NCBI RefSeq assembly: GCF_038024855.1
Contig: NZ_CP139089.1
Location: 3,809,501 to 3,873,500 of the forward strand
DNA from: Methylocella tundrae
Lineage (GTDB): Bacteria > Pseudomonadota > Alphaproteobacteria > Rhizobiales > Beijerinckiaceae
Length of the DNA stretch: 64,000 nucleotides
Direction of reading: 5' to 3'
The notes under the pieces were generated by a model. The model did no database searches. It was not told the origin of the DNA and was given only the letters and a program-made list of their open reading frames with translations. Positions 48,384 to 64,000 of the stretch are shown one piece after another. Positions within the stretch are counted from its first letter, which is position 1; each line of letters begins with the position of its first letter. The position numbers and the translations under genes are program-made.

Positions 48384-48397
48384 TTGATGTGAATCAT
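48384..48397. promoter_or_regulatory. FNR/FixK-type box upstream of the CBS/acs/pdh group
   Basis: TTGAT-GTGA-ATCAT matches the FNR/FixK consensus TTGAT-N4-ATCAA at nine of ten fixed bases. A TATCAG element at 48420-48425 sits at the distance expected for the -10 of a class II promoter (predicted start near 48432). This suggests activation under low oxygen of the CBS gene and perhaps of the operon beyond. Confidence 0.6.
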
Positions 48398-48534
48398 AGC
48401 CCTCGAACATTGAAGAGACTATCAGCAATGCCCCTGCGCGCGTTCCGCAAGGCAGGCTGGGCAGCGGGCGAGACGGCCATTGCCGCGACGCGGCCATGAC
48501 CAGGTGGAAAGAGGTCCGCCATGAAAGTAAAAAA

Positions 48535-48972
48535 ATGATGCACAATGGTGTTTCTCCGGACACAGCCGTCACGGCGCTGGCAAAAAAAATGCAACAATCT
48601 GATATCGGCGCTATTCCTGTCGGTGAAAACGATCGGCTCATTGGTATGGTGACCGACCGCGACATCACGGTGCGTGGCGCCATGAGCGGGAAGGATCTCG
48701 ATAAGCTCACCGCTGGGGACGTGATGACTGCCGGCGTAATCTACTGCCGCGACAGCGAAACAGTGGATGAGGCGGCGCGGATAATGGAAAGCAAGCAGGT
48801 AAGACGGTTGCCCGTCATCGATGCGAACAAGAGAATGGTTGGGATGATCAGCCTCGGTGATGTTTCGCATGCGGCCTCGCAGGAGCGACGAAGGCTGTCT
48901 CGGCCCATCACGCCTGACCAAAAAGCTCCTGGCCAAGGGTCAATCGTGACCTTTATCTCAAGCGTATCCTGA
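48535..48972 (+). CDS. Tandem CBS-domain protein
   Basis: About 145 residues forming one CBS pair (Bateman module) that binds adenine nucleotides. CBS1 includes [20 protein letters not shown] and [12 protein letters not shown]2 includes [20 protein letters not shown]. Stand-alone proteins of this type usually start MKVKxxM. Here an ATG with a good GAGGT site (48521) reads MKVKK and then meets TGA after a run of seven A (48529-48535). One more A would restore the family N-terminus. In the CBS frame the choices are ATG 48535/48538 (overlapping that TGA, so restart is possible) or ATG 48496 without a site. It precedes acs by 31 bp. Confidence 0.85.
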
Positions 48973-49003
48973 AAACCAGAAAAACGCCGGCCTGGAGGAG
49001 CCA

Positions 49004-50761
49004 ATGGAATGGAAGGCTATTCGAAAGCGTTCAGAGGACTTTGCGGGCGCCAACCTTCAGGATTACGAAACTTCGGTTGCAACCTTCTCATGGTCGCAAG
49101 AACAAACGCTGCTTGGCGGGTTACCGCAGGGCGGTCTTAATATCGCTCATGAGGCGGTTGATCGGCATGTATTGGCCGGGCGCGGCGGAAAGCTCGCGCT
49201 ACGCTGCATTGGCCGCGACGATCGGGTTCAAGACTTCTCCTACGCTGATCTCCAGGCTGCGGCCAATCGATTCGCTAATGTCTTGGCGCGGTGGGGCGTG
49301 GGGAAAGGCGAGCGGGTCTTTTCGCTGCTTGGCCGGACGCCGGAGCTTTACATCGCCGCCCTCGGCACGCTCAAGAACGGCAGCGTGTTCTCGCCGCTGT
49401 TCTCGGCCTTCGGACCGGAGCCGATCAAAGCGCGCATGACGATCGGCGCCGCCAAGGCCCTTATCGTTTCCGAAACGTTCTACCGGCGCAAAATCGAGCC
49501 TATTCGCCACGAATTGACGAGCCTCGGGCATGTCTTTCTGACCGATTGCCTGGACGATCCGCCCGCGGGCGCGACCGATCTTGCGGCCGACATGGCGGCG
49601 GCGTCGGATTCGTTTGAAACGGTTTTGACGGGCCCCGAGGACATGGCCCTCCTGCATTTCACCAGCGGAACAACCGGGCGACCAAAAGGCGCCGTGCACG
49701 TGCACCAATCCGTCGTCGCCCATCATGTGACGGGCAAGCTCGCGCTTGATCTCCATCCCGGCGACATCTTTTGGTGCACGGCTGATCCCGGCTGGGTGAC
49801 GGGCACGTCTTACGGCATCATTTCTCCGCTCACGAATGGCGCCACGCTGATCGTCGACCAGGCCGAATTCGAAGCCGAACGCTGGTACAGAATTCTTGAG
49901 AAGCAGAAAATCAATGTCTGGTACACAGCGCCGACCGCGATCCGCATGCTCATGAAAGCTGGCGCCGGCGTCGCTAAGCGGTTCGATTTGTCGAACTTGC
50001 GTTTCATGGCCAGCGTCGGCGAACCGCTCAACCCTGAGGCTGTCGTTTGGGGACTCGAAGCATTCGGGATGCCGTTCCACGACAATTGGTGGCAGACTGA
50101 GACCGGCGGCATCATGATCGCCAATTACCGGTCCATGGACGTCAAGCCGGGATCGATGGGCAGGCCATTGCCTGGTGTGACGGCTTCGATCGTCGAACGG
50201 AAGCAAGGCGGGGAGATCCAGGAGAGCGCGAAGCCAATGATCATGGGAGAGCTTGCGCTGCGTCCGGGCTGGCCCTCGATGATGCGCGCCTATCTGAACG
50301 AGGAGGAGCGTTACCGCAAATGTTTCGCCGGCGGCTGGTACCTAACCGGCGATCTCGCGATGCGCGACGACGAAGGCTATTATTGGTTTGTTGGCCGGGC
50401 CGATGACGTCATCAAGAGCGCAGGCCATCTCGTCGGCCCATTCGAGGTGGAAAGCGCCCTCATGGAACACGAGGCGGTCGCCGAGGCTGGCGTGATTGGA
50501 ATCCCGGACGAGATTGCGGGGGAGGTCGTGAAAGCCTTTATCGCCTTGAAGGAAGGGGTTGAACCGACCGAGGGGTTGCGCAAGGAGCTGCTCGGCCACG
50601 CGCGCAAGCGCCTTGGTCCCGCGATCGCGCCAAAGGACATCGCTTTCCGCAAGAACCTGCCGAAGACGCGCAGCGGCAAGATCATGCGCCGGCTCTTGAA
50701 AGCGCGTGAATTGGGGCTGCCGGAGGGCGATCTGTCGACGCTTGAGAGCGAGGAGCAATGA
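49004..50761 (+). CDS. acs: Acetate--CoA ligase family enzyme (AMP-forming)
   Basis: Adenylate-forming enzyme making acetyl-CoA, or a similar short acyl-CoA, from acid, ATP and CoA. The 585-residue protein is shorter than classical Acs (about 650) and resembles the AcsA group of Gram-positives. Motifs: P-loop [26 protein letters not shown] with the acyl-pocket Trp, [20 protein letters not shown], and the C-terminal catalytic lysine in [13 protein letters not shown]. The stop overlaps the pdhA start (ATGA), so it is translationally coupled to the dehydrogenase genes and forms the first gene of a five-gene unit. Confidence 0.93.
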
Positions 50762-51741
50762 CCGATAAACCACGTTTGTCGCGGGCGCATGAGCTCGACC
50801 TCCTCAAGCACATGATCCGTATCCGCCGGTTTGAGGACAAATGCGCCGAGCTCTATACGCAGGAGAAGATTAGGGGCTTTCTCCATCTCTACGATGGAGA
50901 GGAGGCCGTCGCCGCCGGGGTCATTCCCGTGCTCGAGAAGCGCGATCGGGTTGTTTCTACCTATCGCGAGCATGGCCATGCGCTCGTGCGCGGCGTGTCG
51001 ATGAAGGCTGCGCTCGCCGAGATGTACGGCAAGCAGGAGGGATGTAGCGGTGGCCGCGGAGGCTCAATGCACCTGTTCGACCGGGCGACTAATTTCTACG
51101 GAGGCAACGCCATTGTCGGGGGTGGGCTTCCAATGGCGGTCGGTCTCGCGCTGGCCGATCACATGCGCGGGGAGGACATTGTGACTGCCTGCTTCTTCGG
51201 CGACGGCGCCGTCGCGGAAGGCGAGTTTCATGAGAGCCTCAATTTAGCGATGCTCTGGACGCTCCCTGTGCTGTTCGTGTGCGAGAATAATCTCTACGCC
51301 ATGGGAACGTCGCTGGCGCTCTCCGAATCGGAGACCGATCTGCACCTTAAGGCGGCAAGCTATCGGATCGCTGCCGAGGCGATCGATGGCATGGACGTGA
51401 TCGCGGTCGAGGCCGCGGCGCGACGCGCGGTGGAGGCGGTGCGGCGAACAGGAAAGCCGTATTTTCTCGAATGCCACACCTACCGGTTCCGCGGCCATTC
51501 AATGTTCGACAGCCAACTCTACCGCGACAAGACTGAGGTCGAGGCCTGGCGGCAAAAGGGGCCGATCGTGCGGTTCAGCGGCTGGCTCGAGGCAAATCAC
51601 ATGATCCACCCGGAGGATATGGCGCTGATCGAAGCTGAGGTCGCCGCCGAAATCGCCGAAGCCATTGCTTTCGCAGAGGCGGGAACATGGGAGCCGGTCG
51701 AACGCCTCAAGCGATTCACTTATGCGGAAGGGACAGCCTGA
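50758..51741 (+). CDS. pdhA: Pyruvate/2-oxoacid dehydrogenase E1 alpha subunit
   Basis: Thiamine-diphosphate enzyme half that decarboxylates pyruvate or a related oxoacid. The 327 residues start with the family [19 protein letters not shown]; the TPP-binding motif runs from [19 protein letters not shown] to VCENN, and the regulatory loop [10 protein letters not shown] is present. Members of this size are often labelled acetoin or pyruvate dehydrogenase E1 alpha; the neighbouring acetate ligase and PEP synthase favour pyruvate. It is coupled to acs by ATGA and followed by the beta subunit after 19 bp. Confidence 0.93.
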
Positions 51742-51760
51742 CAGGCTGGCGACGGGCCTC

Positions 51761-52771
51761 ATGCCACAAAACGCAGATCGATCCGAACCTGTCGAGATCA
51801 GCTATCGAGAGGCCGTGCGCGCTGCGATCCGCGATGCGCTCACGCGCGATCAGCGCGTCTTCCTGATGGGCGAAGACGTTGGCCGTTACGGAGGTTGTTA
51901 TGCGGTCACCAAGGGACTTCAGGCGGAGTTCGGACCGGAGAGAATCCGTGACGCGCCGCTGTCGGAGTCGGGGTTTACGGGCGCCGGAATCGGCGCCGCA
52001 ATGGCGGGCATGCGCCCGATTGTCGAATTGATGACCGTGAATTTCAGCCTGCTCGCGCTCGACCAGATTCTCAACTCCGCCGCTACCATTCGTCATATGT
52101 CCGGCAATCAATTCGGCGTGCCGCTGGTGATCAGGATGGCGACCGGCGCGGGCCGTCAGCTCGCCGCTCAGCACTCGCACAGTCTCGAAGGGTGGTACGC
52201 CCACATTCCAGGCATTAAAGTGCTCGCGCCGGCAACGCTCGAGGATGCGCGAGGCATGCTATGGACGGCCCTTCAGGATCCGGATCCCGTGCTGATCTTC
52301 GAAAACATCGTGCTTTACAATATGAGCGGAAAGCTCGCGGCCGATGCCGGCCCGGTCGAGATCGACAAAGCCGCGGTGCGCCGCGTGGGGCGAGATATCT
52401 CTCTCATCACCTACGGCGGATCGCTGTGGAAGTGTCTCGAAGCCGCCCGCATGCTCGCGGATGAAAATATCGAGGCGGAAGTCATCGATCTGCGCAGCTT
52501 GCGGCCGCTGGATGATGTGACGATCATCGCATCGGTGAGCAAAACGCGGCGCGCCATCGTAGTCGATGAAGGCTGGCGCAGCGGCAGCATTTCGGCGGAA
52601 ATTTGTACACGCGTCATCGAGCAGGCGTTCTGGGAGCTCGATGCGCCGCCAGGCCGCGTCTGCAGCGAGGAGGCGCCGATTCCCTATCCGCGCCATCTTG
52701 AGCAGGCTGCAATCCCCCAGGCGCCGAAAATTGTCGCGGCGGTGAAATCCGCGCTTGTGCGCGAAAGGTGA
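51761..52771 (+). CDS. pdhB: Pyruvate/2-oxoacid dehydrogenase E1 beta subunit
   Basis: Second half of the E1 heterotetramer, 336 residues. Signatures are [40 protein letters not shown], and the late EEAPIPYP. A conserved potassium/TPP contact region ([15 protein letters not shown]) is intact. I start at 51761; an ATG at 51722 inside pdhA is an alternative without a better site. The next gene starts four bases after the stop. Confidence 0.93.
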
Positions 52772-52775
52772 CGCC

Positions 52776-53975
52776 GTGGCCGAATTTCGCATGCCCTCGC
52801 TTGGCGCCGATATGGAGGCCGGAACGCTCGTCGAGTGGATGGTGAAGCCAGGAGATCGCGTCAAACGCGGCGAAGTCGTCGCCGTAGTGGAGACTCAGAA
52901 AGGGGCGATCGAGGTCGAAATTTTTGAGACTGGCGAGGTTGAGCAGATTCTGGTCGATCTTGGCGCCAAAGTGCCAGTCGGGACGGCGCTAGCGAAAATT
53001 CGTACGGAGCAGGAAGCCAGAGCCGGTATCTACGCAAAGCCTGCCGAAGCGGCTTCAGCGATGGCGCCTCCTGTAGCCGCACCCGCTGCGCAGCATCTGA
53101 TTTTGCCTTCGACGGCCCCAAGGCCGGCCCCTTTGGCGATCGATCGCATTCGCGCCTCACCTGCGGCGCGGCGGTTCGCTCAGACTCGCGATCTGGACCT
53201 TGCAGCGATCACCGGCAGCGGTCCGGCGGGCGCCATCGTTCTTCGAGACGTCGAACGCCATCTCACCGCCGTAGCGACGCCGGTGGAGAAGAAGTCCGCG
53301 CCGGGCCTCAACCTTGACGCTATGCGGGCGGCGATCGCCTCCGCCATGGCGCGATCGAAGCGTGAAATTCCACATTATTATCTTGAGCATCGGGTTGACG
53401 TAACGCGATGCGAGGCGTGGCTTGCGCAGGTCAATGCGGTCCGTTCGCCCGACAAAAGAGTGTTGATGGCCGCACCTGTTCTGAAGGCCGTTGCTTTGGC
53501 CGCGCGCCGCTTTCCCGCCTTCAACGGATTTTACCGGGATGGAAAATTCGAGTCGGCCTCCGGCGTCCATGTGGGAGTGGCGATCGCCATTCGCGGCGGC
53601 GGATTGGCGGCGCCGGCGATTCATGACGTCGACCAGCTCTCGTGCGACGAACTTATGGCGCGCACGCACGATTTAGTCCAACGCATGCGGACCGGTCGCA
53701 TCCGCAGTTCGGAAATTGCCGAATCTACCATTACCGTTTCAAGTCTCGGCGAACGCGGCGTCGAAGCGCTCTTTGGCGTGATTTATCCACCCCAGGTAGC
53801 CGTCGTGGGCGTTGGGAAGATCTTACCGCGTCCCTGGATCGTGGAAGGCGCCGTCGCGGCGCGCTCCATCGTCAGCATCACTCTTTCGGGCGATCACAGG
53901 GCCAATGACGGCCATGGCGGAGCTTTGTTCCTGGCCGAAATAGGTAAACTGCTGCAAGAGCCGGAGAAATTATGA
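52776..53975 (+). CDS. pdhC: Dihydrolipoamide acyltransferase (E2)
   Basis: Transfers the acyl group from E1 to CoA. The single lipoyl domain covers residues 2-77 with the lipoyl lysine at about 42 in VETQKGAIEVE (ETDKA is more usual). A linker follows, then the peripheral-subunit-binding domain (IRASPAARRFAQTRDLDLAAI) and the catalytic domain ending in the active-site motif SGDHRANDGHGGALFL (usual DHRxxDG). The start is a GTG at 52776 with AAAGGTGA upstream. Its stop overlaps the ACP start (ATGA). No E3 gene lies in the operon, so a shared lipoamide dehydrogenase elsewhere is assumed. Confidence 0.93.
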   Translation: MAEFRMPSLGADMEAGTLVEWMVKPGDRVKRGEVVAVVETQKGAIEVEIFETGEVEQILVDLGAKVPVGTALAKIRTEQEARAGIYAKPAEAASAMAPPVAAPAAQHLILPSTAPRPAPLAIDRIRASPAARRFAQTRDLDLAAITGSGPAGAIVLRDVERHLTAVATPVEKKSAPGLNLDAMRAAIASAMARSKREIPHYYLEHRVDVTRCEAWLAQVNAVRSPDKRVLMAAPVLKAVALAARRFPAFNGFYRDGKFESASGVHVGVAIAIRGGGLAAPAIHDVDQLSCDELMARTHDLVQRMRTGRIRSSEIAESTITVSSLGERGVEALFGVIYPPQVAVVGVGKILPRPWIVEGAVAARSIVSITLSGDHRANDGHGGALFLAEIGKLLQEPEKL

Positions 53976-54217
53976 AAGATCTCGATATCCGCACGGCATT
54001 AAAGGAGGAACTCGGAAACATTGCGCCTGAAATCGATATAAATTCGGTTGATCCCGCCGCAGACCTGCGGGATGCTCTTGATATTGATTCTATTGATTTC
54101 CTTAATTTTATAACTGCGATCCACCATCGCCTCGAGATCGAGATACCGGAGATCGACTATCCAAGGCTCAGGACGTTGGATGGGGCCGTCAGTTTTCTCA
54201 AAGAGAAGCTTGGGTGA
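53972..54217 (+). CDS. Acyl carrier protein
   Basis: 81 residues, acidic, with the phosphopantetheine serine at about residue 40 in ALDIDSIDFLNF. The third helix region reads EIEIPEIDY. The gene overlaps the E2 stop by four bases (ATGA), so it is part of the acs-pdhA-pdhB-pdhC unit. An ACP inside a 2-oxoacid dehydrogenase operon is unusual: it suggests that the acyl group may be passed to a carrier protein, or that the ACP serves lipoate supply. The gene is locally more AT-rich than its neighbours (around 54075-54120). Confidence 0.9.
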   Translation: MKDLDIRTALKEELGNIAPEIDINSVDPAADLRDALDIDSIDFLNFITAIHHRLEIEIPEIDYPRLRTLDGAVSFLKEKLG

Positions 54218-54266
54218 CGTCAACGGTCATCCGATTAAGCTGAGGATGATGATGTCCTTGTAGGGG

Positions 54267-54440
54267 ATGCCTTTGAATGCCAGTCCGCGAGTTCAGGGTA
54301 AACTGCACGCCGAAAGACCACTCAGCGCACCGGGCGGCGGCAAGCCTACGCAAGGCCGCGAAAAAGCCGCGCCTCACATCAAGGCCGAGCTAGCGCGCGG
54401 ACACCGGCCCGACCCTGCGGGGCTTCCTTTCAGACGATAG
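54267..54440 (+). CDS. Small ORF, 57 residues, unknown
   Basis: An ATG (54267) preceded by TAGGGG opens a 57-codon frame rich in Pro, Gly, Arg and Lys (contains EKAAPHIKAELARGHRPDPA and ends PFRR). I recognise no family. It is the only plausible coding stretch in the 436 bp between the ACP gene and the NUDIX gene; the rest of that gap (54441-54653) shows nothing. Could be a remnant rather than a gene. Confidence 0.25.
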   Translation: MPLNASPRVQGKLHAERPLSAPGGGKPTQGREKAAPHIKAELARGHRPDPAGLPFRR

Positions 54441-54653
54441 TCAGACGATCCTCGACCGAGCTGACGCCCGGCGCCGCCCAAGCCGCCTCTTCTATCGGCG
54501 CAAAGCGGCGCTCACCGCGCCTCATCTTCATCAACGAACTTGACGCTCTCGGTCGCTCATGCTCCGCCGGCTGCGTAGGCCGCCTCCATACGGCATGGCG
54601 GAATAAGTAGAGTCTGGCTCATAAGTTGGTCGCCATGGGCAGCGCCAAACGGA

Positions 54654-55130
54654 TCAATTGACGCCCCCATCGGGCCCAAAAAGCGCTTCGAGACGATCGA
54701 GCAGGATCTGCTGGCCGGGGAGGATCTTCTGGCGGGCCATCGGCAACGCAAACCAGGCGGCGCGATCGATTTCCGGAAAGGACTGCATGCGCCCGCTGCG
54801 AGGCGGCCACTCGATCTCAAACAAGTTGCTGCTGATGCAGGTCGCATCGAAATCGGCCTCCATGGTGAAGGCTTCGGTCTTTTTCCGCGCATTCTGCTGA
54901 ACGCTGCCAAGCGGCCTTAGCGCGCCCGCCGGCATGGCGCCTAGTTCTTCCGCGAATTCGCGGCGAGCGGCGGTTTCGGCATCCTCGTTCTCAGCCACTT
55001 CGCCCTTGGGAATCGACCATGCGCCAAGGTCCGTATTGCGCCAGAACGGACCGCCGGGATGCACGAGAAGTACAAAAAGCTGCCCATCCATGCGCTTATA
55101 CATCAAGACGCCAGCGCTCCTGAGGCTCAT
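54654..55130 (-). CDS. NUDIX hydrolase
   Basis: 158 residues cleaving a nucleoside diphosphate linked to another group. The Nudix box runs residues 43-66: GEVAENEDAETAARREFAEE followed by LGAM, with all catalytic Glu positions present. The start of the chain (SAGVLMYKRMDGQLFVLLVHPGG) matches the subgroup often called predicted NTP pyrophosphohydrolase/DNA-mismatch type. Its ATG overlaps the stop of the fragment upstream (ATGA). Substrate unknown. Confidence 0.9.
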   Translation of the reverse strand: MSLRSAGVLMYKRMDGQLFVLLVHPGGPFWRNTDLGAWSIPKGEVAENEDAETAARREFAEELGAMPAGALRPLGSVQQNARKKTEAFTMEADFDATCISSNLFEIEWPPRSGRMQSFPEIDRAAWFALPMARQKILPGQQILLDRLEALFGPDGGVN

Positions 55131-55336
55131 CTCTTCGGATCCAAAAACTCTACCGCAAGGTCAATTCCAACGCCTTCGTGTGGCGCTCCGCCAAATGAGT
55201 TTCGAATTATCGCGCTGTCTTGAGGTCGATGGCCGAATGGTCCTAACCTTCTGATCGCAGTTTGATTTGTCGATTCAGAAGCGAAGCCGCGCGCGAAGGT
55301 GTCGATATAGCCCTTCATGATCGCCGGCATCGACAT
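55127..55336 (-). pseudogene. Truncated NAD(P)H:quinone oxidoreductase (flavodoxin-fold) fragment
   Basis: 69 codons that open with SMPAIMKGYIDTFARGFASE, the segment found in the second half of flavodoxin-like NAD(P)H dehydrogenases (usual form MPAILKGxIDRVFxxGFAF). The FMN-binding N-terminal two thirds are missing, a TGA lies just upstream, and the later residues do not resemble the family. It overlaps the NUDIX start by four bases and may now only provide translational coupling. Confidence 0.6.
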
Positions 55337-55380
55337 CCGTCACAGCGGGTAGCGGCCGGCCAGAAGCGCCGGAGGTGGCG

Positions 55381-55950
55381 TCAGCTCGCGATCGGGCTCG
55401 CTGCCTCAGCGTGGGATACAATGCCGCCGTATATGCCGTCAACGTGGCGCCCGTCCGACGATAGCGGAGCTGCAAGAACCTCGATCCACTGGCGACGGCC
55501 CGGCTTGACGCGAAGCTCGAACGCCGCGGCCAAAGGCTCGGCCGTTTCAGCGACCGTCTCAAAAAGCCGCCGCAGACGCGCGGTGATGCGCGGCGCGAGC
55601 ATTTTCGAAAGCCTTTTTTCTTGGGACGCCAATCCCAGGAGACGACCTGCTTCAGGCCCGGTCCGACTCGCTTCCCATTCATTCGTCCCGTCAGATCGCT
55701 GGAACACGAAAATACCGGCCGCAATTTCGTCCGGTCCCTGAGCAAGATCGGCGGCGGTCGGCATGAGCCGGCTTCCACGCTTGTCGCGCCAGAATTCAAG
55801 CTCTAGCCTCAAAAGCGGGTCGCTCGCATCGGCGGCGTCAAGGCGATTGAAAAGGCGCGCGAGATGGGGCGGCGCCACGGCGAGCGTGGTCAAGTCATTC
55901 CCCCACGTGCTCGGTCTTCGGCAGCCATCCAACGAGCCACGGATCAACAT
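55381..55950 (-). CDS. PAS-like (PAS_5-type) sensor domain protein
   Basis: About 189 residues. The pattern LLRLELEFWRDKRGSRLMPT with ADLAQGPDEIAAGIFVFQ resembles the alphaproteobacterial PAS_5 family (a conserved FWxxKRGxRxMPxRxDxxP opening), followed by a PAS-like ending AAPLSSDGRHVDGIYGGIV. No output domain is attached. A TTG at 55893 with GGGGGA five bases upstream is an attractive alternative start and would move the coding region away from the FixK-type box in the divergent promoter. Ligand and partner unknown. Confidence 0.6.
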   Translation of the reverse strand: MLIRGSLDGCRRPSTWGNDLTTLAVAPPHLARLFNRLDAADASDPLLRLELEFWRDKRGSRLMPTAADLAQGPDEIAAGIFVFQRSDGTNEWEASRTGPEAGRLLGLASQEKRLSKMLAPRITARLRRLFETVAETAEPLAAAFELRVKPGRRQWIEVLAAPLSSDGRHVDGIYGGIVSHAEAASPIAS

Positions 55951-55973
55951 GAGGGCGCCGAAGACTCCTCTCC

Positions 55974-55987
55974 TTGATCTGCGTCAA
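55974..55987. promoter_or_regulatory. FixK/FNR-type box in the PAS/kinase divergent promoter
   Basis: TTGAT-CTGC-GTCAA fits TTGA-N6-TCAA, the FixK-type core, and misses the FNR consensus by one base. A TATGAT hexamer at 56006-56011 lies toward the kinase gene. It could serve either divergent gene. Confidence 0.5.
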
Positions 55988-56029
55988 CACTTTACGCATC
56001 GAATTTATGATGAGTAAATAGTCAGTCAG

Positions 56030-57076
56030 ATGATCGAGCGCAACGTGACGGATATTCCCGAGACCTCCCTCGAGGAGAAGGTCTGTTTCCTCAAGAGCCC
56101 AGCGGCCTACCGCCCTCAGCCGGCGAAGGTTGAGGTTGAGGAAACCCATATGTCTTGGGTCTTTCTGGCGGGAGATCGCGTTTATAAGTTGAAGAAGCCG
56201 GTCCGCCATTCCTTCCTCGACTTCGGGTCTATCGAAGCGCGTGAGAAGAACTGTCGCGAGGAGCTTCGACTCAATCGTCGTCTGGCGCAGGATATCTATC
56301 TCGGCGTGGCGCCGTTGACTCGGAACGATAGTGGACGCCTCTCGATAGACGGGGAAGGGCGTCCAGTTGACTGGCTGGTCGTCATGCGACGCCTGCCACG
56401 GGATCGCATGCTCGACAGCGCCATTATCGCCCACACTCTCAGCGGCGCGGAAATAGCGTCCGTCGCTGAGCGGCTCGTCGGCTTCTACAAGCACGCTCAG
56501 CCCGCGGATCTCGCGCCGGCGGCCTATGTGGCGCAATTCATTGAAGAGCACGCCCGGAACGAAGCCGTGCTGACCGCTCCGCAATTCGACCTCGATGGTG
56601 GGCGCATCGAACGGCTTTTGGGTCTTGTCGAGGATACTTTGCGCAGCGGCCTCCTGGAGACGCGCGCCGAAAGCGGCCGGATCGTCGAGGGACACGGCGA
56701 CCTGAGGCCGGAGCATGTCTGCCTCAGCCAACCGCCGGTCATTATTGACTGCCTGGAGTTCAATCGGCGGCTCCGCCTTGTCGATCCGGTGGATGAGCTC
56801 ACCTATCTCGGCCTCGAATGCAGCCGTCTGGGGGCGGACTGGGTAGAGCCAGTCCTCTTGAGTGTCTACGTTAAGAGTTCAGGCGACGACACGCCGTCGC
56901 CGGAGCTCGTTTCATTCTATCGGACCTACCGCGCCTGTTTGCGCGCCCGATTATCGCTCGTCCACATTCTGGAGCATGACCAGCGCAAGCCGAAGAAATG
57001 GTTGCCCCTGGCCAAACAATATTTGGACATTGCCGCGTCGGCTAGCCTTAGCCCCGACGTTCCAGCGGCGCAATGA
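56030..57076 (+). CDS. Aminoglycoside-phosphotransferase-like kinase (COG2187 type)
   Basis: 348 residues of the protein-kinase-like APH fold. The glycine/ATP part is near WVFLAGDRVYKLKKPVRHSF; the catalytic loop reads VEGHGDLRPEHVCL and the metal-binding part IIDCLEFNRRLRLVDPVDEL. COG2187 proteins often carry a C-terminal P-loop AAA domain; this one is the kinase half only. The substrate is unknown for the family. Its stop overlaps the next start (ATGA), so it is coupled to the CapA-like gene. A FixK-type box lies 43 bp upstream. Confidence 0.8.
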   Translation: MIERNVTDIPETSLEEKVCFLKSPAAYRPQPAKVEVEETHMSWVFLAGDRVYKLKKPVRHSFLDFGSIEAREKNCREELRLNRRLAQDIYLGVAPLTRNDSGRLSIDGEGRPVDWLVVMRRLPRDRMLDSAIIAHTLSGAEIASVAERLVGFYKHAQPADLAPAAYVAQFIEEHARNEAVLTAPQFDLDGGRIERLLGLVEDTLRSGLLETRAESGRIVEGHGDLRPEHVCLSQPPVIIDCLEFNRRLRLVDPVDELTYLGLECSRLGADWVEPVLLSVYVKSSGDDTPSPELVSFYRTYRACLRARLSLVHILEHDQRKPKKWLPLAKQYLDIAASASLSPDVPAAQ

Positions 57077-58281
57077 TCCGATCGCCTTCGTCAAAGGCGA
57101 TCGAAAGCAGGGTATTGAGCATGAGCCCCTCGGCTCGGTCCACATTCGACTCCCCGGCGCCGCGCCAAGTCATTCGCGTCTTTCTCTGCGGCGACGTGAT
57201 GACGGGGCGCGGCATCGATCAGATCTTGCCGCATCCATGCGACCCTAGTCTGCATGAAGATTATGTGCATTCGGCAAATAGATATGTTCGTCTCGCCGAG
57301 CAGGCGAACGGATCGATTCCAGCGCCGGTTGCGCCGTCCTATATCTGGGGCGCCGCTTTGGACGAGCTGAACCGGAAGGCACCCGACGCTCGCATCATCA
57401 ATCTCGAAACCAGCATTACGCGTAGCGACGCCTATGCTGAAAAAGGCATCAACTATCGAATGAGCCCGGAAAACGCCGCGTGCCTGCCTGCCGCCGGCGT
57501 CGATTGCTGCGCCCTCGGCAACAACCATGTCCTCGACTGGGGGCGCGCCGGACTGCTCGAAACATTGGCCACGCTCGAACGTTTGGGGATCAGGACCGCC
57601 GGAGCTGGCCGCGATCTGGCGCAAGCGCGCGCGCCGGCGATCCTCGAGATCGCCGGCAAAGGACGCTTGCTGGTATTTTCTTTCGCGTCCCCGACGAGCG
57701 GCGTCCCACGGAATTGGGGAGCGACTCCGGTGGCCGCTGGCGTGAACCTTCTCTCCGACTTTGCCGATGAAAGCGTCGCGCGGATCGCGGAACAGGTGGA
57801 GAGCGTACGGCGGCCAGGCGATCTGGTCATCGCGTTCATTCATTGGGGAGCAAATTGGGGATATGAGGTTCCAGAAGAGCAACGACGATTTGCGCGCGGC
57901 CTCATCGATCAGGCCAATGTTTCTCTTGTCCACGGCCATTCCTCGCACCACGCGAAAGCCATCGAAATTTACATGGATCGACTGATCCTCTATGGCTGCG
58001 GCGACTTCCTGAACGATTATGAGGGCATTCGCGGCTACGAGGAATTTCGCGGCGATCTCGCCGTGATGTATTTCGCCGGTTTCGATGCCTTGACCGGACA
58101 TCTTGCGAGTCTCGAACTCTCGGTGCTTCAAATCCGGCGTTTTCAGCTTGTTCCAGCATCGAGAGCTGATGTCGAGTGGATGCGCCGGACGCTCGATCGC
58201 GAAAGCTCTCCGTTCGGCGCGCGGGTCCGCCTGACGCCACACGGGAGACTGACGCTGCGCTGGCGTGATGCGGTCGGTTGA
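57073..58281 (+). CDS. CapA-family metallophosphatase-like protein
   Basis: 402 residues resembling PgsA/CapA (poly-gamma-glutamate synthesis) proteins of the calcineurin-like fold. Visible motifs are FLCGDVMTGRGIDQIL, INLETSITRSD, CCALGNNHVLDWG, FIHWGANWGYEV and LVHGHSSHHAKAIEIY, the expected Asp/Asn/His metal ligands. There is no signal peptide. It overlaps the kinase gene by four bases (ATGA); an ATG at 57121 with GCAGGG upstream is an alternative start. No capsule-synthesis genes are nearby, so the CapA name should not be read as a capsule function. Confidence 0.85.
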   Translation: MIRSPSSKAIESRVLSMSPSARSTFDSPAPRQVIRVFLCGDVMTGRGIDQILPHPCDPSLHEDYVHSANRYVRLAEQANGSIPAPVAPSYIWGAALDELNRKAPDARIINLETSITRSDAYAEKGINYRMSPENAACLPAAGVDCCALGNNHVLDWGRAGLLETLATLERLGIRTAGAGRDLAQARAPAILEIAGKGRLLVFSFASPTSGVPRNWGATPVAAGVNLLSDFADESVARIAEQVESVRRPGDLVIAFIHWGANWGYEVPEEQRRFARGLIDQANVSLVHGHSSHHAKAIEIYMDRLILYGCGDFLNDYEGIRGYEEFRGDLAVMYFAGFDALTGHLASLELSVLQIRRFQLVPASRADVEWMRRTLDRESSPFGARVRLTPHGRLTLRWRDAVG

Positions 58282-58484
58282 CGTGCTGACATGCATATGG
58301 CGCGTTCTTGTGCCCAGCGCCGATCTCATGATTAACGCTTCACCGAGGAGCGCGATCAACGCCGCCGCCCGCCTTGCGTGCGAGAGCTGGCGCACCTCAT
58401 AGGCTAGACGCGTGCGACCGAGCTCAAGTTTAGCCGCAGCCGCATGACGGACCATACCGCCGAGTCCTCCACGAGAGCCGCGAC
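58282..58484. other. Intergenic stretch after the CapA-like gene
   Basis: About 200 bp without a recognisable gene. A minus-strand frame starting near 58450 reads as a helix-rich peptide, but it stays open through the CapA-like gene and has no family. Confidence 0.3.
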
Positions 58485-58984
58485 TCAAAACACAAGGAGA
58501 TCTGTGAGCGGCTGGTCGTGGAGCCGGGCGATCGCCTCGGCCAGCAGCGGCGCAGCCGACGCGATGGCGAGCTTGTCTCGGACGGGACCAGCCGGAAGCC
58601 GGAAGGGAGGAACCGTATCGGTCGTGATGATGCGCTCGATGGCCGGGTCGGCCAGCGTCTTCTCGGCGCCCGGCATGAAGAGGCCGTGCGCGATGCAGGC
58701 GATGATCCACCGCGCGCCGCGATCCACGCGCGGCATGAGCCGCGCGTACGAGCGTTCCGCCCGTGCTGACGAGATCGTCGACGATTATGCAGACGGCCCC
58801 CGCGACGTCGCAAGCGAAAAGGTCGCCGGAGACAACGCCGGCGCTGCGATGCTTTTCCGCGAATGCTTTGCCGACCGGCCGGCCCGTGGACGCCTCCAGC
58901 GCTTCGCGGAGCAAGTCGCCCGAGGAGCCGGCTGATCGCTTGGCCAAGCCCTTCGGTTCCCTTCAACGCGAACAAGCTCAGCCG
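58485..58984 (-). pseudogene. Ribose-phosphate pyrophosphokinase remnant (prs paralogue)
   Basis: Three pieces in different frames follow the order of a ribose-phosphate pyrophosphokinase. First LFALKGTEGLGQAISRL (N-terminus, about 58935-58984). Then EALEASTGRPVGKAFAEKHR through SAGVVSGDLFACDVAG to the PRPP motif IVDDLVSTGGTLVRAA (about 58730-58920). Then GARWIIACIAHGLFMPGAEK and TTDTVPPF to the C-terminus (58485-58725). The middle of the protein, about 165 codons, is missing and at least two frameshifts are present, so the gene is dead. A similar paralogue is commonly found in low-oxygen gene clusters. Confidence 0.8.
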
Positions 58985-59386
58985 GCCGCCAGATATAGGC
59001 CGAACATGCGAGGGCGACCAGATGCGAGGTTTCGCCATCAGCCGCGTCTCCGTTTGGCGGGACCAATGCTCGCCTCGCATAAGCTTTGGTTTGTTGTATC
59101 GGCGCGCCTTGAGCGGCATCAAGCCGCGCGGCTGCATCCGTCTCGACGTTGGTCCCTTGAGGCGCCGCCAGTCATGCTTCGTAAATGGCTCGCGCGGCTT
59201 CGTGCCGAGGACGTCGCCAGGCCGCAGGATTGTTCGTTCAGGCGGCATCGACTAACGTTCCAGGCAGCTGCCTGCAATTAAATTGCGGGCGTCCCAACAC
59301 GATTGTCCCGCCACCGTTGATCGTGATCAAAGGGCTCGATCTCTGGTTGGAGCAGGCTCGCAACCTCAGCCAGGTAGAGGAAGCTA
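58985..59386. other. Region upstream of ppsA
   Basis: 400 bp with no supported gene; the minus frame here is open but matches nothing I know. It carries the FNR/FixK box at 59317-59330. Confidence 0.35.
59317..59330. promoter_or_regulatory. Perfect FNR/FixK box upstream of ppsA
   Basis: TTGAT-CGTG-ATCAA matches the FNR/FixK consensus at all ten fixed bases and ends 56 bp before the ppsA ATG. With the box at -41.5 transcription would begin near 59365. The -10 region there is poor (near CAGGCT), as is common for activator-dependent promoters. Strong hint that ppsA is switched on when oxygen is low. Confidence 0.72.
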
Positions 59387-61807
59387 ATGACCAGCTCAAA
59401 CTATATCCGCTGGTTTGAAGACCTCAGCGGCGCCGATGTCGCCATCGTCGGCGGCAAAACGGCCTCGCTCGGCGAGCTCTGCTCGGCGCTTTCGGGCCAG
59501 GGCGTCAAGGTTCCGCCGGGCTTCGCCGTCACCGCTGAGGCTTACCGCGACGCCCTCACGGCGGCGGGCGCCTCTGCGCCATTGCATCGCCTGCTCGACG
59601 GGCTGGACGTAAGCGACGTCGATCTTTTGTCCGAAAGGGCGGCCGAGGCGCGCCGGATCGTCTACACAGCGACTGGAGGCGAGGAGCTTCGCCGTCAGAT
59701 CGTCGCCGCCTACCGGGAGTTGAAGAAAAGATGCGGCGGGAGCCTCTCCGTCGCGGTGCGCAGTTCGGCGACGGCCGAGGATCTGCCGACGGCGAGCTTT
59801 GCCGGCCAGCATGAGAGCTATCTGAACGTGAGCGGCGAAGCCGCCGCGGTCGAGGCCTGCCGGCAGTGCTTCGCCTCGATCTTCACCGACCGCGCCATCA
59901 CCTACCGCCTCGACAATGGCTTCGATCATTTCAAGGTCGCCCTGTCCGTCGCCGTGATCAAAATGGTGCGTTCGGATGTCGGCTCGAGCGGCGTGATCTT
60001 CACCCTCGACACCGAGACCGGATTCCGCGATGTGGTTTTCGTCACCGGCGGCTATGGCCTCGGTGAGAATATCGTCCAGGGCAGCATCGACCCGGATGAG
60101 TTTTATGTGCACAAGCCGACCTTCAAGAAAGGATTTCGGACGGTGCTCGCGCGCAGGATGGGCGCGAAGCAGCTCAGGATGATCTATGCGGAAAGCGCCG
60201 GCGCGGGCGCGAGAACCAGAAACAAGCCGACGTCGAAGGCGGAGCGGGAGCGTTTCTGCATTTCCGATGAGGACGTGCTCGCCCTGACCGGCTATGCGAT
60301 CGCGATCGAGGATCACTATTCGCTGAAAGCCGGCCGGCCTATGCCCATGGATATCGAATGGGCCAAGGATGGCAAGACCGGCGAGCTCTATATCGTTCAG
60401 GCCCGGCCGGAGACGGTGGCCTCGCGCCGCGCCGCCAATATTCTGCAGACTTATGCGATCAAGGGGTCGGGGCCGGTCATTGTCACCGGCCGCGCGGTCG
60501 GCGAGAAGATCGCGACCGGCATCGCCCGCGTCGTCTCCAGCGTTGAGGATCTCGACGCCTTCCGCCCTGGCGAGATTCTGGTGGCGGAAACCACGAGGCC
60601 CGACTGGCAGACGGTGATGAAAACGGCCGCCGCCATCATCACCAACCGCGGCGGGCGCACCTGCCATGCGGCGATCGTGGCGCGCGAGGCCGGCGTGCCG
60701 GCCGTGGTCGGAACGGGCGATGCGACCTTGAAGCTCAAGACCGGCGCGACCGTGACAGTATCCTGCGCGGAAGGCGACGTCGGGCGGGTCTATGCGGGCG
60801 CCATTCCTTTCGAGGCCTCGGTTATCGACTTCAAGGACCTGCCGACGCCCAAGACGGAGGTCATGGTCAATCTGGGCGATCCCGACCTCGCCTTTCGCGC
60901 GGCCGAACTGCCATCGGCCGGCGTCGGTCTGGCGCGTATGGAATTCATCATCCAGCAGCACATTGGGATCCACCCCATGGCGCTTGCCGAGCCGGCCAAG
61001 GTCGTGTCGGCCAAGGCCAGGGCTGCGATCGCGCGCGCCGTCCGGGGTTATCCACGGCCGGCCGATTTCTTCATCGAACGCCTCTCCGAGGGCGTCGGGA
61101 CCATCGCCGCGGCCTTTTATCCCCGCCCCGTGATTGTCCGCCTCTCGGACTTCAAGACGAATGAATACGCCGGGCTGATCGGCGGCGCCGGCTTTGAGCC
61201 GAAGGAAGACAATCCGATGCTCGGCTTTCGAGGCGCCTCCCGCTACGATCATCCGGCCTATGCCGCGGGCTTTGCTCTTGAATGCGCGGCCTTGCGCCGC
61301 GTGCGCGAGGGAATGGGCCTCACAAATCTCAAGGTCATGGCGCCTTTCGTCCGGCGCGAGGAGGAAGCCAGACGGGTGCTGGCGGCATTGGAGCGCAATG
61401 GGCTGAAGCGCGGCGAGAACGGGCTCGAGGTCTTCGTCATGTGCGAGATCCCCAATAATGTCATCCGCATCGACGCCTTCGCCGAGCTGTTCGACGGTTT
61501 TTCCATCGGCTCCAATGATTTGACGCAGCTCACCTTGGGCGTCGACCGGGACTCCGAGATCGTCGCCTTCGATTTCGACGAGCGCGACCCCGGCATGCTG
61601 GAGATGCTGCGTCTCGCCGTCACGGGCGCGAAGCGTAACGGGCGCCATGTCGGCATCTGCGGCGAGGCGCCTGCAAACTATCCCGAGATCGCCGCCGCTC
61701 TGGTCGGCTGGGGAATTGATTCCATCAGCGTCAATCCATCCAGCCTGATCGGCGCGCTGAAGGTGGTGGCGGATGCGGAACGCGCGGCGGCCGCAGCGCG
61801 GCCTTAG
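59387..61807 (+). CDS. ppsA: Phosphoenolpyruvate synthase
   Basis: Converts pyruvate and ATP to PEP, AMP and phosphate. The 806-residue enzyme has the N-terminal ATP-grasp domain (VGGKTASLGELCSAL; VRSSATAEDLPTASFAGQHE), the swivelling phosphohistidine domain with the catalytic His in NRGGRTCHAAIVARE, and the PEP-binding barrel with GSNDLTQLTLGVDRDS and the catalytic Cys in HVGICGEAPAN. The TTG/ATG region at 59387 has a plausible AGGTAGAGGAAG site. A perfect FNR/FixK box lies upstream. Together with the pyruvate dehydrogenase and acetate ligase operon it places pyruvate partitioning at the centre of this region. Confidence 0.95.
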   Translation: MTSSNYIRWFEDLSGADVAIVGGKTASLGELCSALSGQGVKVPPGFAVTAEAYRDALTAAGASAPLHRLLDGLDVSDVDLLSERAAEARRIVYTATGGEELRRQIVAAYRELKKRCGGSLSVAVRSSATAEDLPTASFAGQHESYLNVSGEAAAVEACRQCFASIFTDRAITYRLDNGFDHFKVALSVAVIKMVRSDVGSSGVIFTLDTETGFRDVVFVTGGYGLGENIVQGSIDPDEFYVHKPTFKKGFRTVLARRMGAKQLRMIYAESAGAGARTRNKPTSKAERERFCISDEDVLALTGYAIAIEDHYSLKAGRPMPMDIEWAKDGKTGELYIVQARPETVASRRAANILQTYAIKGSGPVIVTGRAVGEKIATGIARVVSSVEDLDAFRPGEILVAETTRPDWQTVMKTAAAIITNRGGRTCHAAIVAREAGVPAVVGTGDATLKLKTGATVTVSCAEGDVGRVYAGAIPFEASVIDFKDLPTPKTEVMVNLGDPDLAFRAAELPSAGVGLARMEFIIQQHIGIHPMALAEPAKVVSAKARAAIARAVRGYPRPADFFIERLSEGVGTIAAAFYPRPVIVRLSDFKTNEYAGLIGGAGFEPKEDNPMLGFRGASRYDHPAYAAGFALECAALRRVREGMGLTNLKVMAPFVRREEEARRVLAALERNGLKRGENGLEVFVMCEIPNNVIRIDAFAELFDGFSIGSNDLTQLTLGVDRDSEIVAFDFDERDPGMLEMLRLAVTGAKRNGRHVGICGEAPANYPEIAAALVGWGIDSISVNPSSLIGALKVVADAERAAAAARP

Positions 61808-61825
61808 AGTGTGGGAGACGAATCC

Positions 61826-62284
61826 ATGCAACTCAGATCGAGCGCCTTTTCCGACGGTAGCGCTATCCCGCGGCGTTTTACCTGTGCGGGCGAAGACGTG
61901 TCCCCGCCGCTCCATTGGACTGATGCGCCGGAAGGAACTCGCAGTTTTGTCCTTCTCTGCGACGACCCCGATGCTCCGGCAGGGATTTGGCGTCACTGGG
62001 CGGCTTACGATCTTCCTGCCGATCGTACAGCGCTCCCCGAGGGCGCTGGTCGGCCCGGAGGCGAGGATGGCTCAAAACAGGCGCTTAACGACTTCGGCCG
62101 ATCGGATTACGGCGGCCCCTGCCCACCACGCGGCCATGGGCCGCATCATTACCATTTCCGGCTGCTTGCGCTCTCAATAGACCATCTGCCAGTGCGCAGG
62201 AATCCATCCTGCCGGGATGTCGAACGAGAGGCGCGCAAACATCTTCTTGCGGAAACAATCCTCGTGGGAACGTACCAGCGATGA
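61826..62284 (+). CDS. YbhB/YbcL-type PEBP-family protein
   Basis: 152 residues of the phosphatidylethanolamine-binding/Raf-kinase-inhibitor fold. The signature blocks are SAIPRRFTCAGEDVSPPLHW, LLCDDPDAPAGIWRHWAAYD and GPCPPRGHGPHHYHFRLLAL, which form the conserved anion pocket. It lacks a signal peptide. Role in bacteria is poorly defined. It begins 18 bp after ppsA with GGGAG upstream and may be cotranscribed with it; a GTG five codons earlier is an alternative start. Confidence 0.9.
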   Translation: MQLRSSAFSDGSAIPRRFTCAGEDVSPPLHWTDAPEGTRSFVLLCDDPDAPAGIWRHWAAYDLPADRTALPEGAGRPGGEDGSKQALNDFGRSDYGGPCPPRGHGPHHYHFRLLALSIDHLPVRRNPSCRDVEREARKHLLAETILVGTYQR

Positions 62285-62376: not shown

Positions 62377-64000
62377 ATGCCGGTGCAGAATGCCGAGATT
62401 GCGGCGTTGTTCGACCAAGCGGCCGAGCTACTGGAGATCAAGGGCGATAACCCTTTTCGCAGCAGGGCATACCGCCGAGCGGCGCGCCTCATTGAAGGAT
62501 TGCCTAAAAGCGTTACGAGTCTTCTGAAAGCAGGGGAAGATCTCTCGGAATTGCCCGGCATCGGCAAAGATTTGGCCGGTAAGATTGCGGCCATCGTCAC
62601 AACCGGAAAATTCGATCTCCTCGAATCCTTGAAGGACGAGCTGCCCGGCGATCTGGGCGAGATAGCCGCCTTGCCCGGTCTCGGTCCGAAACGCGTCAAG
62701 CTTCTCTACGACAAGCTCGGCGTTCGCTCGATCGAAGATCTTTATCGCGCCGCCAAGGCGGGGCGTCTCCGCGAGCTCCGGGGCTTCGGCCCAAAGAGCG
62801 AGGCGAAGCTCCTTGCCGCGCTCGCCAAGCCCCCGAGCCAGAAGAGGTTTAAACTCGCAATGGCCGAGGCGGAGGCGGAAGCGCTTGTCAGCTTCCTGCG
62901 CCCGGGGTTGGACAAAGCTCGGGTCGTAGTGGCGGGCAGCTATCGCCGGCGTCGCGACACGGTCGGGGATCTGGATATTCTTGTCGCCGCGCACCGCAAT
63001 GCGGCTGCCGGAGACAGGCTCTCAAAATATGAGAACGTGGCGAACGTCCTCGCCCACGGGCCGACGCGGACCACCGTCGTGCTTCGCTCCGGCCTCCAGG
63101 TCGACCTCCGCGTCGTTCCGGAGCAGAGTTACGGCGCGGCTCTGATGTATTTTACCGGCTCCAAGGCGCACAATATCGCGCTCCGCGCTCTCGCCAATGA
63201 GCGCGGTTGGAAACTCAATGAATATGGTCTTTTCGACGGCGAGCGGCAGATCGCCGGTGCGACAGAGGAAGACGTCTATGGGAAGCTCGACCTCGCCTTC
63301 GTCCCACCGGAGCTGCGCGAGGACCGGGGCGAAGTCGTGCTGGCAAAGAAGAAACGGCTGCCCAAGCTCGTGTCGCTCTCCGACATTCGCGGCGATCTTC
63401 ACGTCCATTCGGAGTGGAGCGACGGCACGGTTTCCATTGCCGACATGGCAGCAGCAGCCAGAGAGCGCGGCTACGCCTATATGGCGATCACGGACCACAG
63501 CCAGCGCGTAACCATCGCTCATGGCCTCGATCCTGCGCGGCTTTCGCGGCAAATTGACGAAGTTGATCGCCTCAACGACGAACTCGAGGGCTTCGTCGTG
63601 CTCAAAGGCGTCGAGGTCGATATTTTGGCGGATGGTCGCCTTGATCTTCCAAATAAAATCCTGTCTCGTCTTGATGTCGTTGTTGCCGCCGTCCATTATA
63701 AGTTCGATCTCTTCCGCCAGGCTCAGACGGAGCGGATCATCCGCGCGATGGACAACCGGAACATGTCGATCCTGGCGCATCCGACCGCCCGATTGATTGG
63801 AGAGCGGGAGCCCTATGACGTCGATATGGAGCGCGTCATCGCTGCGGCGCATGAGCGCGGTTGCCACCTCGAGGTGAATGCTGAGCCGGAGCGGCTGGAT
63901 CTGACAGATGTGCACGCTCAAGCCGCGAAATCGATGGGCGTCAAAGTCGCGATCTCGACCGACGCTCACACGACCGCGGCGCTCGGATATATGCGGTTTG
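62377..64000 (+). CDS. polX: DNA polymerase X family protein with PHP domain (runs off the right edge)
   Basis: Base-excision-repair polymerase with a 3'-5' exonuclease/AP-endonuclease PHP domain. 541 codons are in the window without a stop. The N-terminal 8-kDa-like and HhH regions contain KGDNPFRSRAYRRAARLIE and LPGIGKDLAGKIAAI; the palm carries GSYRRRRDTVGDLDIL and VDLRVV (catalytic Asp residues). The PHP part has DLHVHSEWSDG, ITDHSQ, AAVHYKFDL, AHPTARL and STDAHT, all metal ligands intact. Family members are about 570-580 residues, so only the last few dozen are missing. The ATG at 62377 has AGGGAACAGGA upstream. Confidence 0.93.
   Translation, partial: MPVQNAEIAALFDQAAELLEIKGDNPFRSRAYRRAARLIEGLPKSVTSLLKAGEDLSELPGIGKDLAGKIAAIVTTGKFDLLESLKDELPGDLGEIAALPGLGPKRVKLLYDKLGVRSIEDLYRAAKAGRLRELRGFGPKSEAKLLAALAKPPSQKRFKLAMAEAEAEALVSFLRPGLDKARVVVAGSYRRRRDTVGDLDILVAAHRNAAAGDRLSKYENVANVLAHGPTRTTVVLRSGLQVDLRVVPEQSYGAALMYFTGSKAHNIALRALANERGWKLNEYGLFDGERQIAGATEEDVYGKLDLAFVPPELREDRGEVVLAKKKRLPKLVSLSDIRGDLHVHSEWSDGTVSIADMAAAARERGYAYMAITDHSQRVTIAHGLDPARLSRQIDEVDRLNDELEGFVVLKGVEVDILADGRLDLPNKILSRLDVVVAAVHYKFDLFRQAQTERIIRAMDNRNMSILAHPTARLIGEREPYDVDMERVIAAAHERGCHLEVNAEPERLDLTDVHAQAAKSMGVKVAISTDAHTTAALGYMRF

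What the first reader, a model, noticed from the sequence alone, without database searches (positions are those of the whole stretch)
48384..61807. Oxygen-responsive C2/C3 module: CBS protein, acs-pdhABC-ACP, COG2187 kinase, CapA-like, ppsA
Three FNR/FixK-type boxes (48384, 55974, 59317) fall within 11 kb and in front of the three main transcription units of this accessory region; I noticed none in the other 50 kb. The genes handle acetate, pyruvate and PEP and include an adenylate-sensing CBS pair. The composition recalls low-oxygen loci such as the lxa locus of Burkholderia cenocepacia and the DosR regulon, but the acs-PDH-ACP core is different. A coherent, possibly undescribed fermentation/acetate-recycling island is my inference.
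Basis: partly seen in the sequence, partly recalled or inferred. Interest (0 to 1): 0.75.

Follow-up and report, generated by a model that had tools for sequence, protein, structure and literature searches.

The report
Low-oxygen acetyl-making operon with carrier protein
This methanotroph-like bacterium carries a five-gene set, also found in other bacterial phyla, that looks like a spare low-oxygen machine for making acetyl groups from pyruvate and acetate, with its own small carrier protein whose job is unknown.

Summary
The genes and three boxes are real. What matters is the five-gene core at 49004-54217: acetate--CoA ligase, PDH E1-alpha, E1-beta, E2 and an acyl carrier protein (ACP). Of 55 loci with a clear E2 relative, in six phyla, 54 have the ACP and 51 the ligase (3 of 4 ligase misses are contig ends). 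A second set of 16 loci, from an even draw of the class, gave 15 and 14. No E3 motif was found in the 55. An FNR/FixK-type box lies 30-200 bases before acs in 27 of 57 loci tested; the best of 19 permuted palindromes reached 4. Oxygen control is thus well supported by sequence; no expression was seen. I read it as a mobile, oxygen-regulated PDH variant. The bold part, that E2 hands acetyl to the ACP, is inferred from anatomy and from QncN/L/M-type antibiotic systems. Ten searches of an open-access library listed no description of it.

The parts
48384..48397 (.). FNR/FixK-type box TTGATGTGAATCAT, 112 bp before the CBS start
   Evidence: Methylocapsa aurea L015 has a perfect box before its CBS gene
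48496..48972 (+). two-CBS-domain protein, 31 nt before acs
   Evidence: Pfam CBS 2.4e-25; 87% relative just before acs in L015
49004..50761 (+). core 1: acetate--CoA ligase
   Evidence: NF003313 901.8 bits, cut-off 729
50758..51741 (+). core 2: PDH E1-alpha
   Evidence: TIGR03182 435.3 bits, cut-off 393.85
51761..52771 (+). core 3: PDH E1-beta (start ATG 51761 chosen by eye; listed ORF from 51665)
   Evidence: NF006667 401.2 bits, cut-off 321
52776..53975 (+). core 4: E2 acyltransferase with lipoyl, E3-binding and catalytic domains (start GTG 52776 chosen by eye; listed ORF from 52755)
   Evidence: Pfam; below every NCBIfam E2 cut-off listed (best 231.8 against 445); set apart in the tree
53972..54217 (+). 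core 5: acyl carrier protein, Ser40 in DIDS motif; start overlaps E2 stop by 4 bases
   Evidence: Pfam PP-binding 1.8e-7; ACP present in 54 of 55 loci; DS motif in 54 of 54
54654..55130 (-). NUDIX hydrolase, neighbour
   Evidence: Pfam 1.7e-14
55381..55950 (-). PAS-domain protein, neighbour; related ORFs lie near the operon in L018 and L023
55974..55987 (.). FNR/FixK-type box TTGATCTGCGTCAA, 56 bp before COG2187
56030..57076 (+).
   Evidence: weak APH hit; relatives at 7 other operon loci
57073..58281 (+). CapA-like protein (PGA_cap), overlaps COG2187 by 4 bases
   Evidence: Pfam 4.7e-76
59317..59330 (.). perfect FNR/FixK-type box TTGATCGTGATCAA, 70 bp before ppsA (a 1-mismatch site lies at 59109)
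59387..61807 (+). PEP synthase PpsA
   Evidence: NF005057 1104 bits, cut-off 598
61811..62284 (+). PEBP-family protein, neighbour
   Evidence: Pfam 2.5e-43
62377..64000 (+). PolX-type DNA polymerase/PHP protein, runs off the window; polX also lies near the operon on a Sinorhizobium plasmid
   Evidence: Pfam; L070

Best explanation
A mobile five-gene operon, switched on at low oxygen by an FNR/FixK-type activator, encodes a specialised pyruvate dehydrogenase variant. E1 decarboxylates pyruvate and puts acetyl on the lipoyl arm of E2. E3 (not encoded here) is borrowed from the housekeeping complexes. The acetate--CoA ligase feeds acetate into the same two-carbon pool. The dedicated ACP is a working part: most likely it receives the acetyl group from E2, alongside or instead of CoA. 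In this genome the same signal probably also drives COG2187-CapA and PEP synthase, the latter returning pyruvate to PEP. Shown: gene content, order, overlap of E2 and ACP genes, wide co-occurrence, conserved boxes. Inferred: low-oxygen induction, mobility, pyruvate as substrate, E3 sharing, and transfer to ACP (the least certain step, about 0.4).
For: Five genes in constant order in Alpha-, Beta-, Gammaproteobacteria, a Myxococcota MAG, Verrucomicrobiota, Dormiibacterota and Actinomycetota, and without the cut-off ligase end in a Chloroflexota MAG. ACP in 54 of 55 and ACS in 51 of 55 loci with E2 of 200 bits or more; 0 of 12 other E2 loci have such an ACP. Even draw of the class: 16 of 289 genomes with the E2, own included; ACP 15 of 16, ACS 14 of 16 fetched loci, none a near copy of the first set (best DNA match 77%). 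ACP start 4 bases inside E2 stop in 44 of 54. Box before acs at up to 2 mismatches: 19 of 45 (background 6.6%) and 8 of 12 in the second set (background 6.5%); together 27 of 57 against at most 4 of 57 for 19 permuted palindromes, and 35 of 298 flanking ORFs; 21 of 32 site positions fall at -59 to -99. Own genome has Crp-family proteins with the ExxSR helix, three of them beside perfect boxes, and perfect boxes in a Usp/Hsp20/P-type ATPase island. Streptomyces plasmid L072 has two exact OsdR-like sites between a divergent usp and acs. PpsA: 6 of 16 PpsA-type genes in 21 genomes, own included, lie within 35 kb of the operon.
Against: No expression or enzyme data. 30 of 57 acs upstream regions have no box at 2 mismatches, the window's own acs included (its box is before CBS). 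No OsdR-like site in 2 Rhodococcus loci or L033; in L072 22% of random 300-bp windows hold a 1-mismatch OsdR-like site, and the two exact sites may serve the usp gene. No E2-ACP fusion in the 15 loci checked. Usp near the operon is only mildly enriched in 21 genomes (7 of 128 matches within 35 kb, counted by hand). Near relatives are in the counts (for example L016 and L040 share a site), so binomial values are too strong.
Confidence: 0.6

Rival explanations
1. An ordinary low-oxygen PDH isozyme that acetylates CoA; the ACP only helps to make it, for example as octanoyl donor for lipoylation of this E2.
For: E1 components pass curated PDH models; E2 keeps lipoyl, E3-binding and HRxxDG motifs; lipoyl assembly uses octanoyl-ACP (general knowledge).
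Against: The ACP reaches no NCBIfam ACP cut-off and goes with this E2: 54 of 55 loci against 0 of 12 other E2 loci. Canonical complexes manage with the housekeeping ACP (general knowledge).
Confidence: 0.25
2. The E1-E2-ACP set makes an unusual two-carbon or other acyl-ACP for a product (lipid, signal, natural product), as QncN/QncL/QncM and SclQ1-4 do.
For: Same set E1-alpha, E1-beta, E2, ACP (PMC6335953, passages read). Residues peculiar to this E2 family: R280, M301, R310, Q347 in 52-53 of 54 rows. Some single neighbours are of ACP or acyl-activation type: a KAS III-type gene 8 kb away in L073, FabI in L083, an acyltransferase in L033, two AMP-binding proteins in L075.
Against: No NRPS or ketosynthase among the window genes scanned near it or the 25 commonest flank families (rarer ones not seen). 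E1-alpha passes the pyruvate dehydrogenase model. The ligase is constant here; the passages on SclQ1-4 name none in that set.
Confidence: 0.15
3. The acetate--CoA ligase itself loads the ACP with acetate, and the PDH is a parallel acetyl source.
For: Ligase and ACP are both constant members.
Against: The ligase scores as an acetate--CoA ligase and sits at the other end of the operon; E2 is the gene that overlaps the ACP.
Confidence: 0.1
4. Chance: background boxes in front of unrelated neighbours.
For: Site clusters of equal density exist on contig C2; flank genes vary.
Against: Gene order kept across phyla and the box across genera.
Confidence: 0.03

Closest known systems
Pyruvate dehydrogenase complex (E1-alpha/E1-beta type)
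   Same: E1-alpha, E1-beta, E2 with lipoyl, E3-binding and catalytic domains
   Different: ACP and acetate--CoA ligase in the operon; no E3 motif nearby; E2 set apart in the tree and below curated E2 cut-offs
QncN/QncL/QncM and SclQ1-4 (hydroxyethyl/glycolicacyl-ACP units in natural products)
   Same: E1 halves plus E2 plus ACP in one cluster; there the unit is attached to the ACP
   Different: there in NRPS clusters and proposed to use a ketose phosphate; here with a ligase, no NRPS seen, often in stress or low-oxygen neighbourhoods
lxa locus (Burkholderia cenocepacia) and DosR/OsdR regulons
   Same: low-oxygen type promoter signal; many relatives of the operon sit near Usp, Hsp20, P-type ATPase or ppsA
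   Different: PDH or ACP not mentioned in the main text of 6 papers on these and related regulons (word searches); no Usp found near it in this window
FNR/FixK regulons
   Same: TTGAT-N4-ATCAA box (recalled consensus) at a promoter-like distance
   Different: this target operon was not found in the listings searched

Membership tests
Pyruvate dehydrogenase complex | E1-alpha and E1-beta of the PDH type | tested here: met
   TIGR03182 and NF006667 over cut-off
Pyruvate dehydrogenase complex | E2 with lipoyl, E3-binding and acyltransferase domains | tested here: met
   three Pfam domains; H381 and R382 in 53 of 54, D385 in 50 of 54
Pyruvate dehydrogenase complex | E2 passes a curated PDH E2 model | tested here: not met
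   best 231.8 against 445 bits
Pyruvate dehydrogenase complex | E3 available | tested here: inconclusive
   no CxNxGCxPSK-type motif (recalled) in 55 operon loci, found in 4 of 12 others; housekeeping E3 not searched
Pyruvate dehydrogenase complex | pyruvate to acetyl-CoA activity | not testable with these tools
   needs enzyme assay
Qnc/Scl-type acyl-ACP cassette | E1 halves, E2 and ACP genes together | tested here: met
   PMC6335953 passages
Qnc/Scl-type acyl-ACP cassette | NRPS neighbour | tested here: not met
   none among window genes scanned nearby or the 25 commonest flank families
Qnc/Scl-type acyl-ACP cassette | E2 transfers the unit to ACP | not testable with these tools
   needs assay
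FNR/FixK regulon | conserved box before the operon | tested here: met
   27 of 57 loci, permuted controls at most 4 of 57
FNR/FixK regulon | cognate regulator in the genome | tested here: met
   ExxSR Crp-family proteins; meaning of the motif recalled
FNR/FixK regulon | low-oxygen induction | not testable with these tools
   no expression data
lxa-type locus | universal stress proteins in the locus | tested here: not met
   nearest Usp match on C3 about 1 Mb away; met by the second island L092

The most novel reading that the evidence does not exclude
A pyruvate dehydrogenase-like complex of central metabolism that delivers acetyl from pyruvate to a dedicated carrier protein instead of CoA when oxygen is scarce, giving aerobes a CoA-independent, protein-bound acetyl pool, spread as a mobile operon across phyla and wired separately to FNR/FixK in proteobacteria and to an OsdR/DosR-type site in Streptomyces.
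Probability: 0.35. Interest if true: 0.85.

Novelty: new variant of a known kind. Interest (0 to 1): 0.68.

Why it matters
PDH is textbook-central, and its E2 is held to pass acetyl to CoA. A PDH-like operon with its own ACP, kept together in six phyla and under oxygen-type promoters in many proteobacteria, suggests another acceptor or a new way to run acetyl metabolism in oxygen-starved or dormant aerobes. It can be tested directly with a few purified proteins. It may also be a central-metabolism cousin of the E1-E2-ACP cassettes that antibiotic makers use.

Tried and rejected
Rejected: the 13-kb block as one conserved unit. Rejected: box density alone as proof. Looked for E2-ACP fusion: none in 15 loci. 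Looked for OsdR/DosR-like sites before acs in 4 actinobacterial loci: L072 yes, L073, L080 and L033 no. Distance correlation of the five proteins: 0.64-0.73 among ACS, E1a, E2 and ACP; E1b only 0.18-0.22, probably because my E1b extraction took wrong starts and fused genes; not used. Tree (53 operon rows): the row L004_own was translated on the wrong strand and is junk, and it is why the operon label needs two changes; apart from it the 15 other E2s sit behind one branch (100/100, 1.29). Rfam and tRNA scans of the window: nothing. The last literature searches listed nothing relevant. Of 29 plasmid records I fetched 16. Dropped before the 55-locus count: L067 (duplicate of L015), and L042 and L054, which have E2 and ACP hits but no E1-beta hit. 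Of 312 flank ORFs picked, 260 were scanned with Pfam and 52 were not. Structure prediction was not used.
Full report
What is there. The window is G000:C3:3809501-3873500 of a 4.42-Mb genome in 3 contigs. Among named genomes the closest E2 is that of Methylocapsa aurea (L015, 76% identical; records very near the own genome may be left out there). The M. aurea contig has the same length (234,539 bases) as contig C5 of G004, which the tool calls same genus, so the genus is probably Methylocapsa (inference). The named genes are present. CBS, acs, E1-alpha, E1-beta, E2 and ACP run in one direction from 48496 to 54217 with 4-base overlaps at acs/E1-alpha and E2/ACP. COG2187-CapA (56030-58281) and ppsA (59387-61807) follow, separated by a NUDIX and a PAS gene on the other strand and by a broken prs-like stretch.

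The boxes. TTGATNNNNATCAA with at most one mismatch occurs 8 times in the window, not 3: four sites lie in 48-60 kb, four in 30-43 kb. In the genome there are 165, so the block has 4 where 0.50 is expected (P 0.0018, chosen after the fact). Similar clusters exist on contig C2, so density alone is weak.

Conservation of the core. One scan of the genome collection (84,980 species by its description) with E2 gave 45 loci; to these come 29 plasmid records (16 fetched) and 8 regions of unnamed relatives. L067 duplicates L015 and was dropped; L042 and L054 had no E1-beta hit and fell out. Of the remaining 67 loci, the window included, 52 have all five genes. With E2 of at least 200 bits (55 loci) the ACP is found in 54 and ACS (over 300 bits) in 51. 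The ACP miss is L044, a Chloroflexi MAG with E2 only 35% identical and no ligase; the other three ligase misses are at contig ends. None of 12 other E2 loci has this ACP. The ACP start lies 4 bases inside the E2 stop in 44 of 54. In four roseobacter plasmids the gene annotated E1-alpha is about 2 kb and no separate E1-beta is listed, so the two look fused. Tree: 53 operon E2s and 15 other E2s are split by a 100/100 branch of 1.29 (one junk row is described under tried and rejected).

Independent check. An even draw of 289 genomes of the class gave 16 with the E2, own included; in close relatives 9 of 79, own included. The distribution is patchy. Sixteen further loci from 15 of these genomes were fetched: ACP in 15, ACS in 14. 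The exception for both, L096, has an E2 34% identical and looks like an ACP-less, ligase-less outgroup; L109 is cut by its contig. None of the 16 is a near copy of a locus of the first set (best DNA match 77%).

Promoters. Nine loci of non-proteobacterial records were set aside; one Myxococcota (L041) and one unassigned MAG (L030) stayed in. Boxes at -200 to -30 of acs: at most 1 mismatch 10 of 45 against 1.5% in random windows of the same loci, at most 2 mismatches 19 of 45 against 6.6%. Second set: 5 of 12 against 1.0% and 8 of 12 against 6.5%. Together 27 of 57; 19 permuted palindromes of the same letters reach at most 4 of 57; upstream regions of 298 flanking ORFs give 35. Of 32 site positions, 21 fall at -59 to -99 and 13 at -66 to -76. 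Thirty of 57 have no such site. The window's acs is one of these, since its box lies before CBS. In Streptomyces (L072) two exact OsdR-like sites lie between a divergent usp and acs, of three in the whole 24.9-kb locus; one-mismatch sites are common there (22% of random windows), and the Rhodococcus loci have none.

Neighbours. Counting the window, relatives of COG2187 are at 8 of 55 loci, PEP synthase 11 (one a 10% fragment), CBS 7 (several weak), CapA 4, PEBP 3. In 11 plasmid loci with gene annotation, Usp is listed in 8, Hsp20 in 6, ppsA in 3. So the operon often lives in low-oxygen or stress neighbourhoods, but the company changes.

How it probably works. The ligase, E1-alpha and E1-beta pass curated models: acetate and pyruvate are the likely inputs. 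E2 has the lipoyl, E3-binding and catalytic parts but passes no curated E2 model, and carries residues of its own (R280 where 11 of 13 other E2s have T; M301, R310, Q347). The ACP keeps its DS motif in 54 of 54 and reaches no NCBIfam ACP cut-off. No E3 motif lies in the 55 loci. The close analogue is the QncN/QncL/QncM and SclQ1-4 set, where E1-E2-like proteins put a two-carbon unit on an ACP (PMC6335953, three passages read). I therefore commit to a low-oxygen PDH variant with ACP as a working partner of E2; transfer to ACP is an inference at about 0.4.

Is it known? Ten searches of the open-access library listed no paper on this operon by title or start of abstract; and 83 more papers matched than were listed. 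In the main text of six papers (Myxococcus NmpRSTU, B. thailandensis oxygen response, lxa in infection isolates, B. cenocepacia micro-oxia, B. cenocepacia anoxic survival, OsdR) I searched for acyl carrier, pyruvate dehydrogenase, acetyl-CoA synthetase, acetate-CoA and dihydrolipoa- and found none; supplements were not searched. The founding lxa paper is not held. So 'undescribed' holds only for what I could search.

Verdict. The core is a real, cross-phylum operon with an oxygen-type promoter in many proteobacteria and a new variant of PDH.

Noticed in passing
L092 (G000:C3:2818001-2838000): A second low-oxygen-type island in the same genome: P-type ATPase, perfect box, shortened PPDK_N gene (236 aa), Usp, DUF3775, perfect box, Usp, Hsp20, 1-mismatch box, PHB depolymerase, LigD. 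The ppsA in the window may stand in for the shortened copy.
   Followed up: partly
about 58430-58940 (- strand): A broken phosphoribosylpyrophosphate synthetase-like stretch: recognisable pieces lie in two different frames (family recognised by eye, no Pfam hit in the open ORF).
   Followed up: partly
G000:C2:130505-138406, 230827-253534, 277597-294942: Contig C2 (304 kb) holds clusters of FNR-type boxes as dense as the window's.
   Followed up: no
L088, L090, L091: Three Crp-family genes with the ExxSR helix each lie near a perfect TTGAT-N4-ATCAA site, as if self-regulated.
   Followed up: no
L044:7600-11000; L096:4853-8023: E1-alpha/E1-beta/E2 sets of intermediate similarity (E2 34-35%) without ligase or ACP: possible outgroup of the operon.
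   Followed up: no
L069, L071, L081, L083: Roseobacter plasmids list one pdhA gene of about 2 kb and no separate E1-beta, as if the two E1 genes are fused.
   Followed up: no
G193:C29 and C122 (L097, L098): One genome of the class carries two copies of the operon.
   Followed up: no
L060:12490-15864: Archease, RtcB and an M50 protease with CBS domains sit between the operon and ppsA in a same-genus relative.
   Followed up: no
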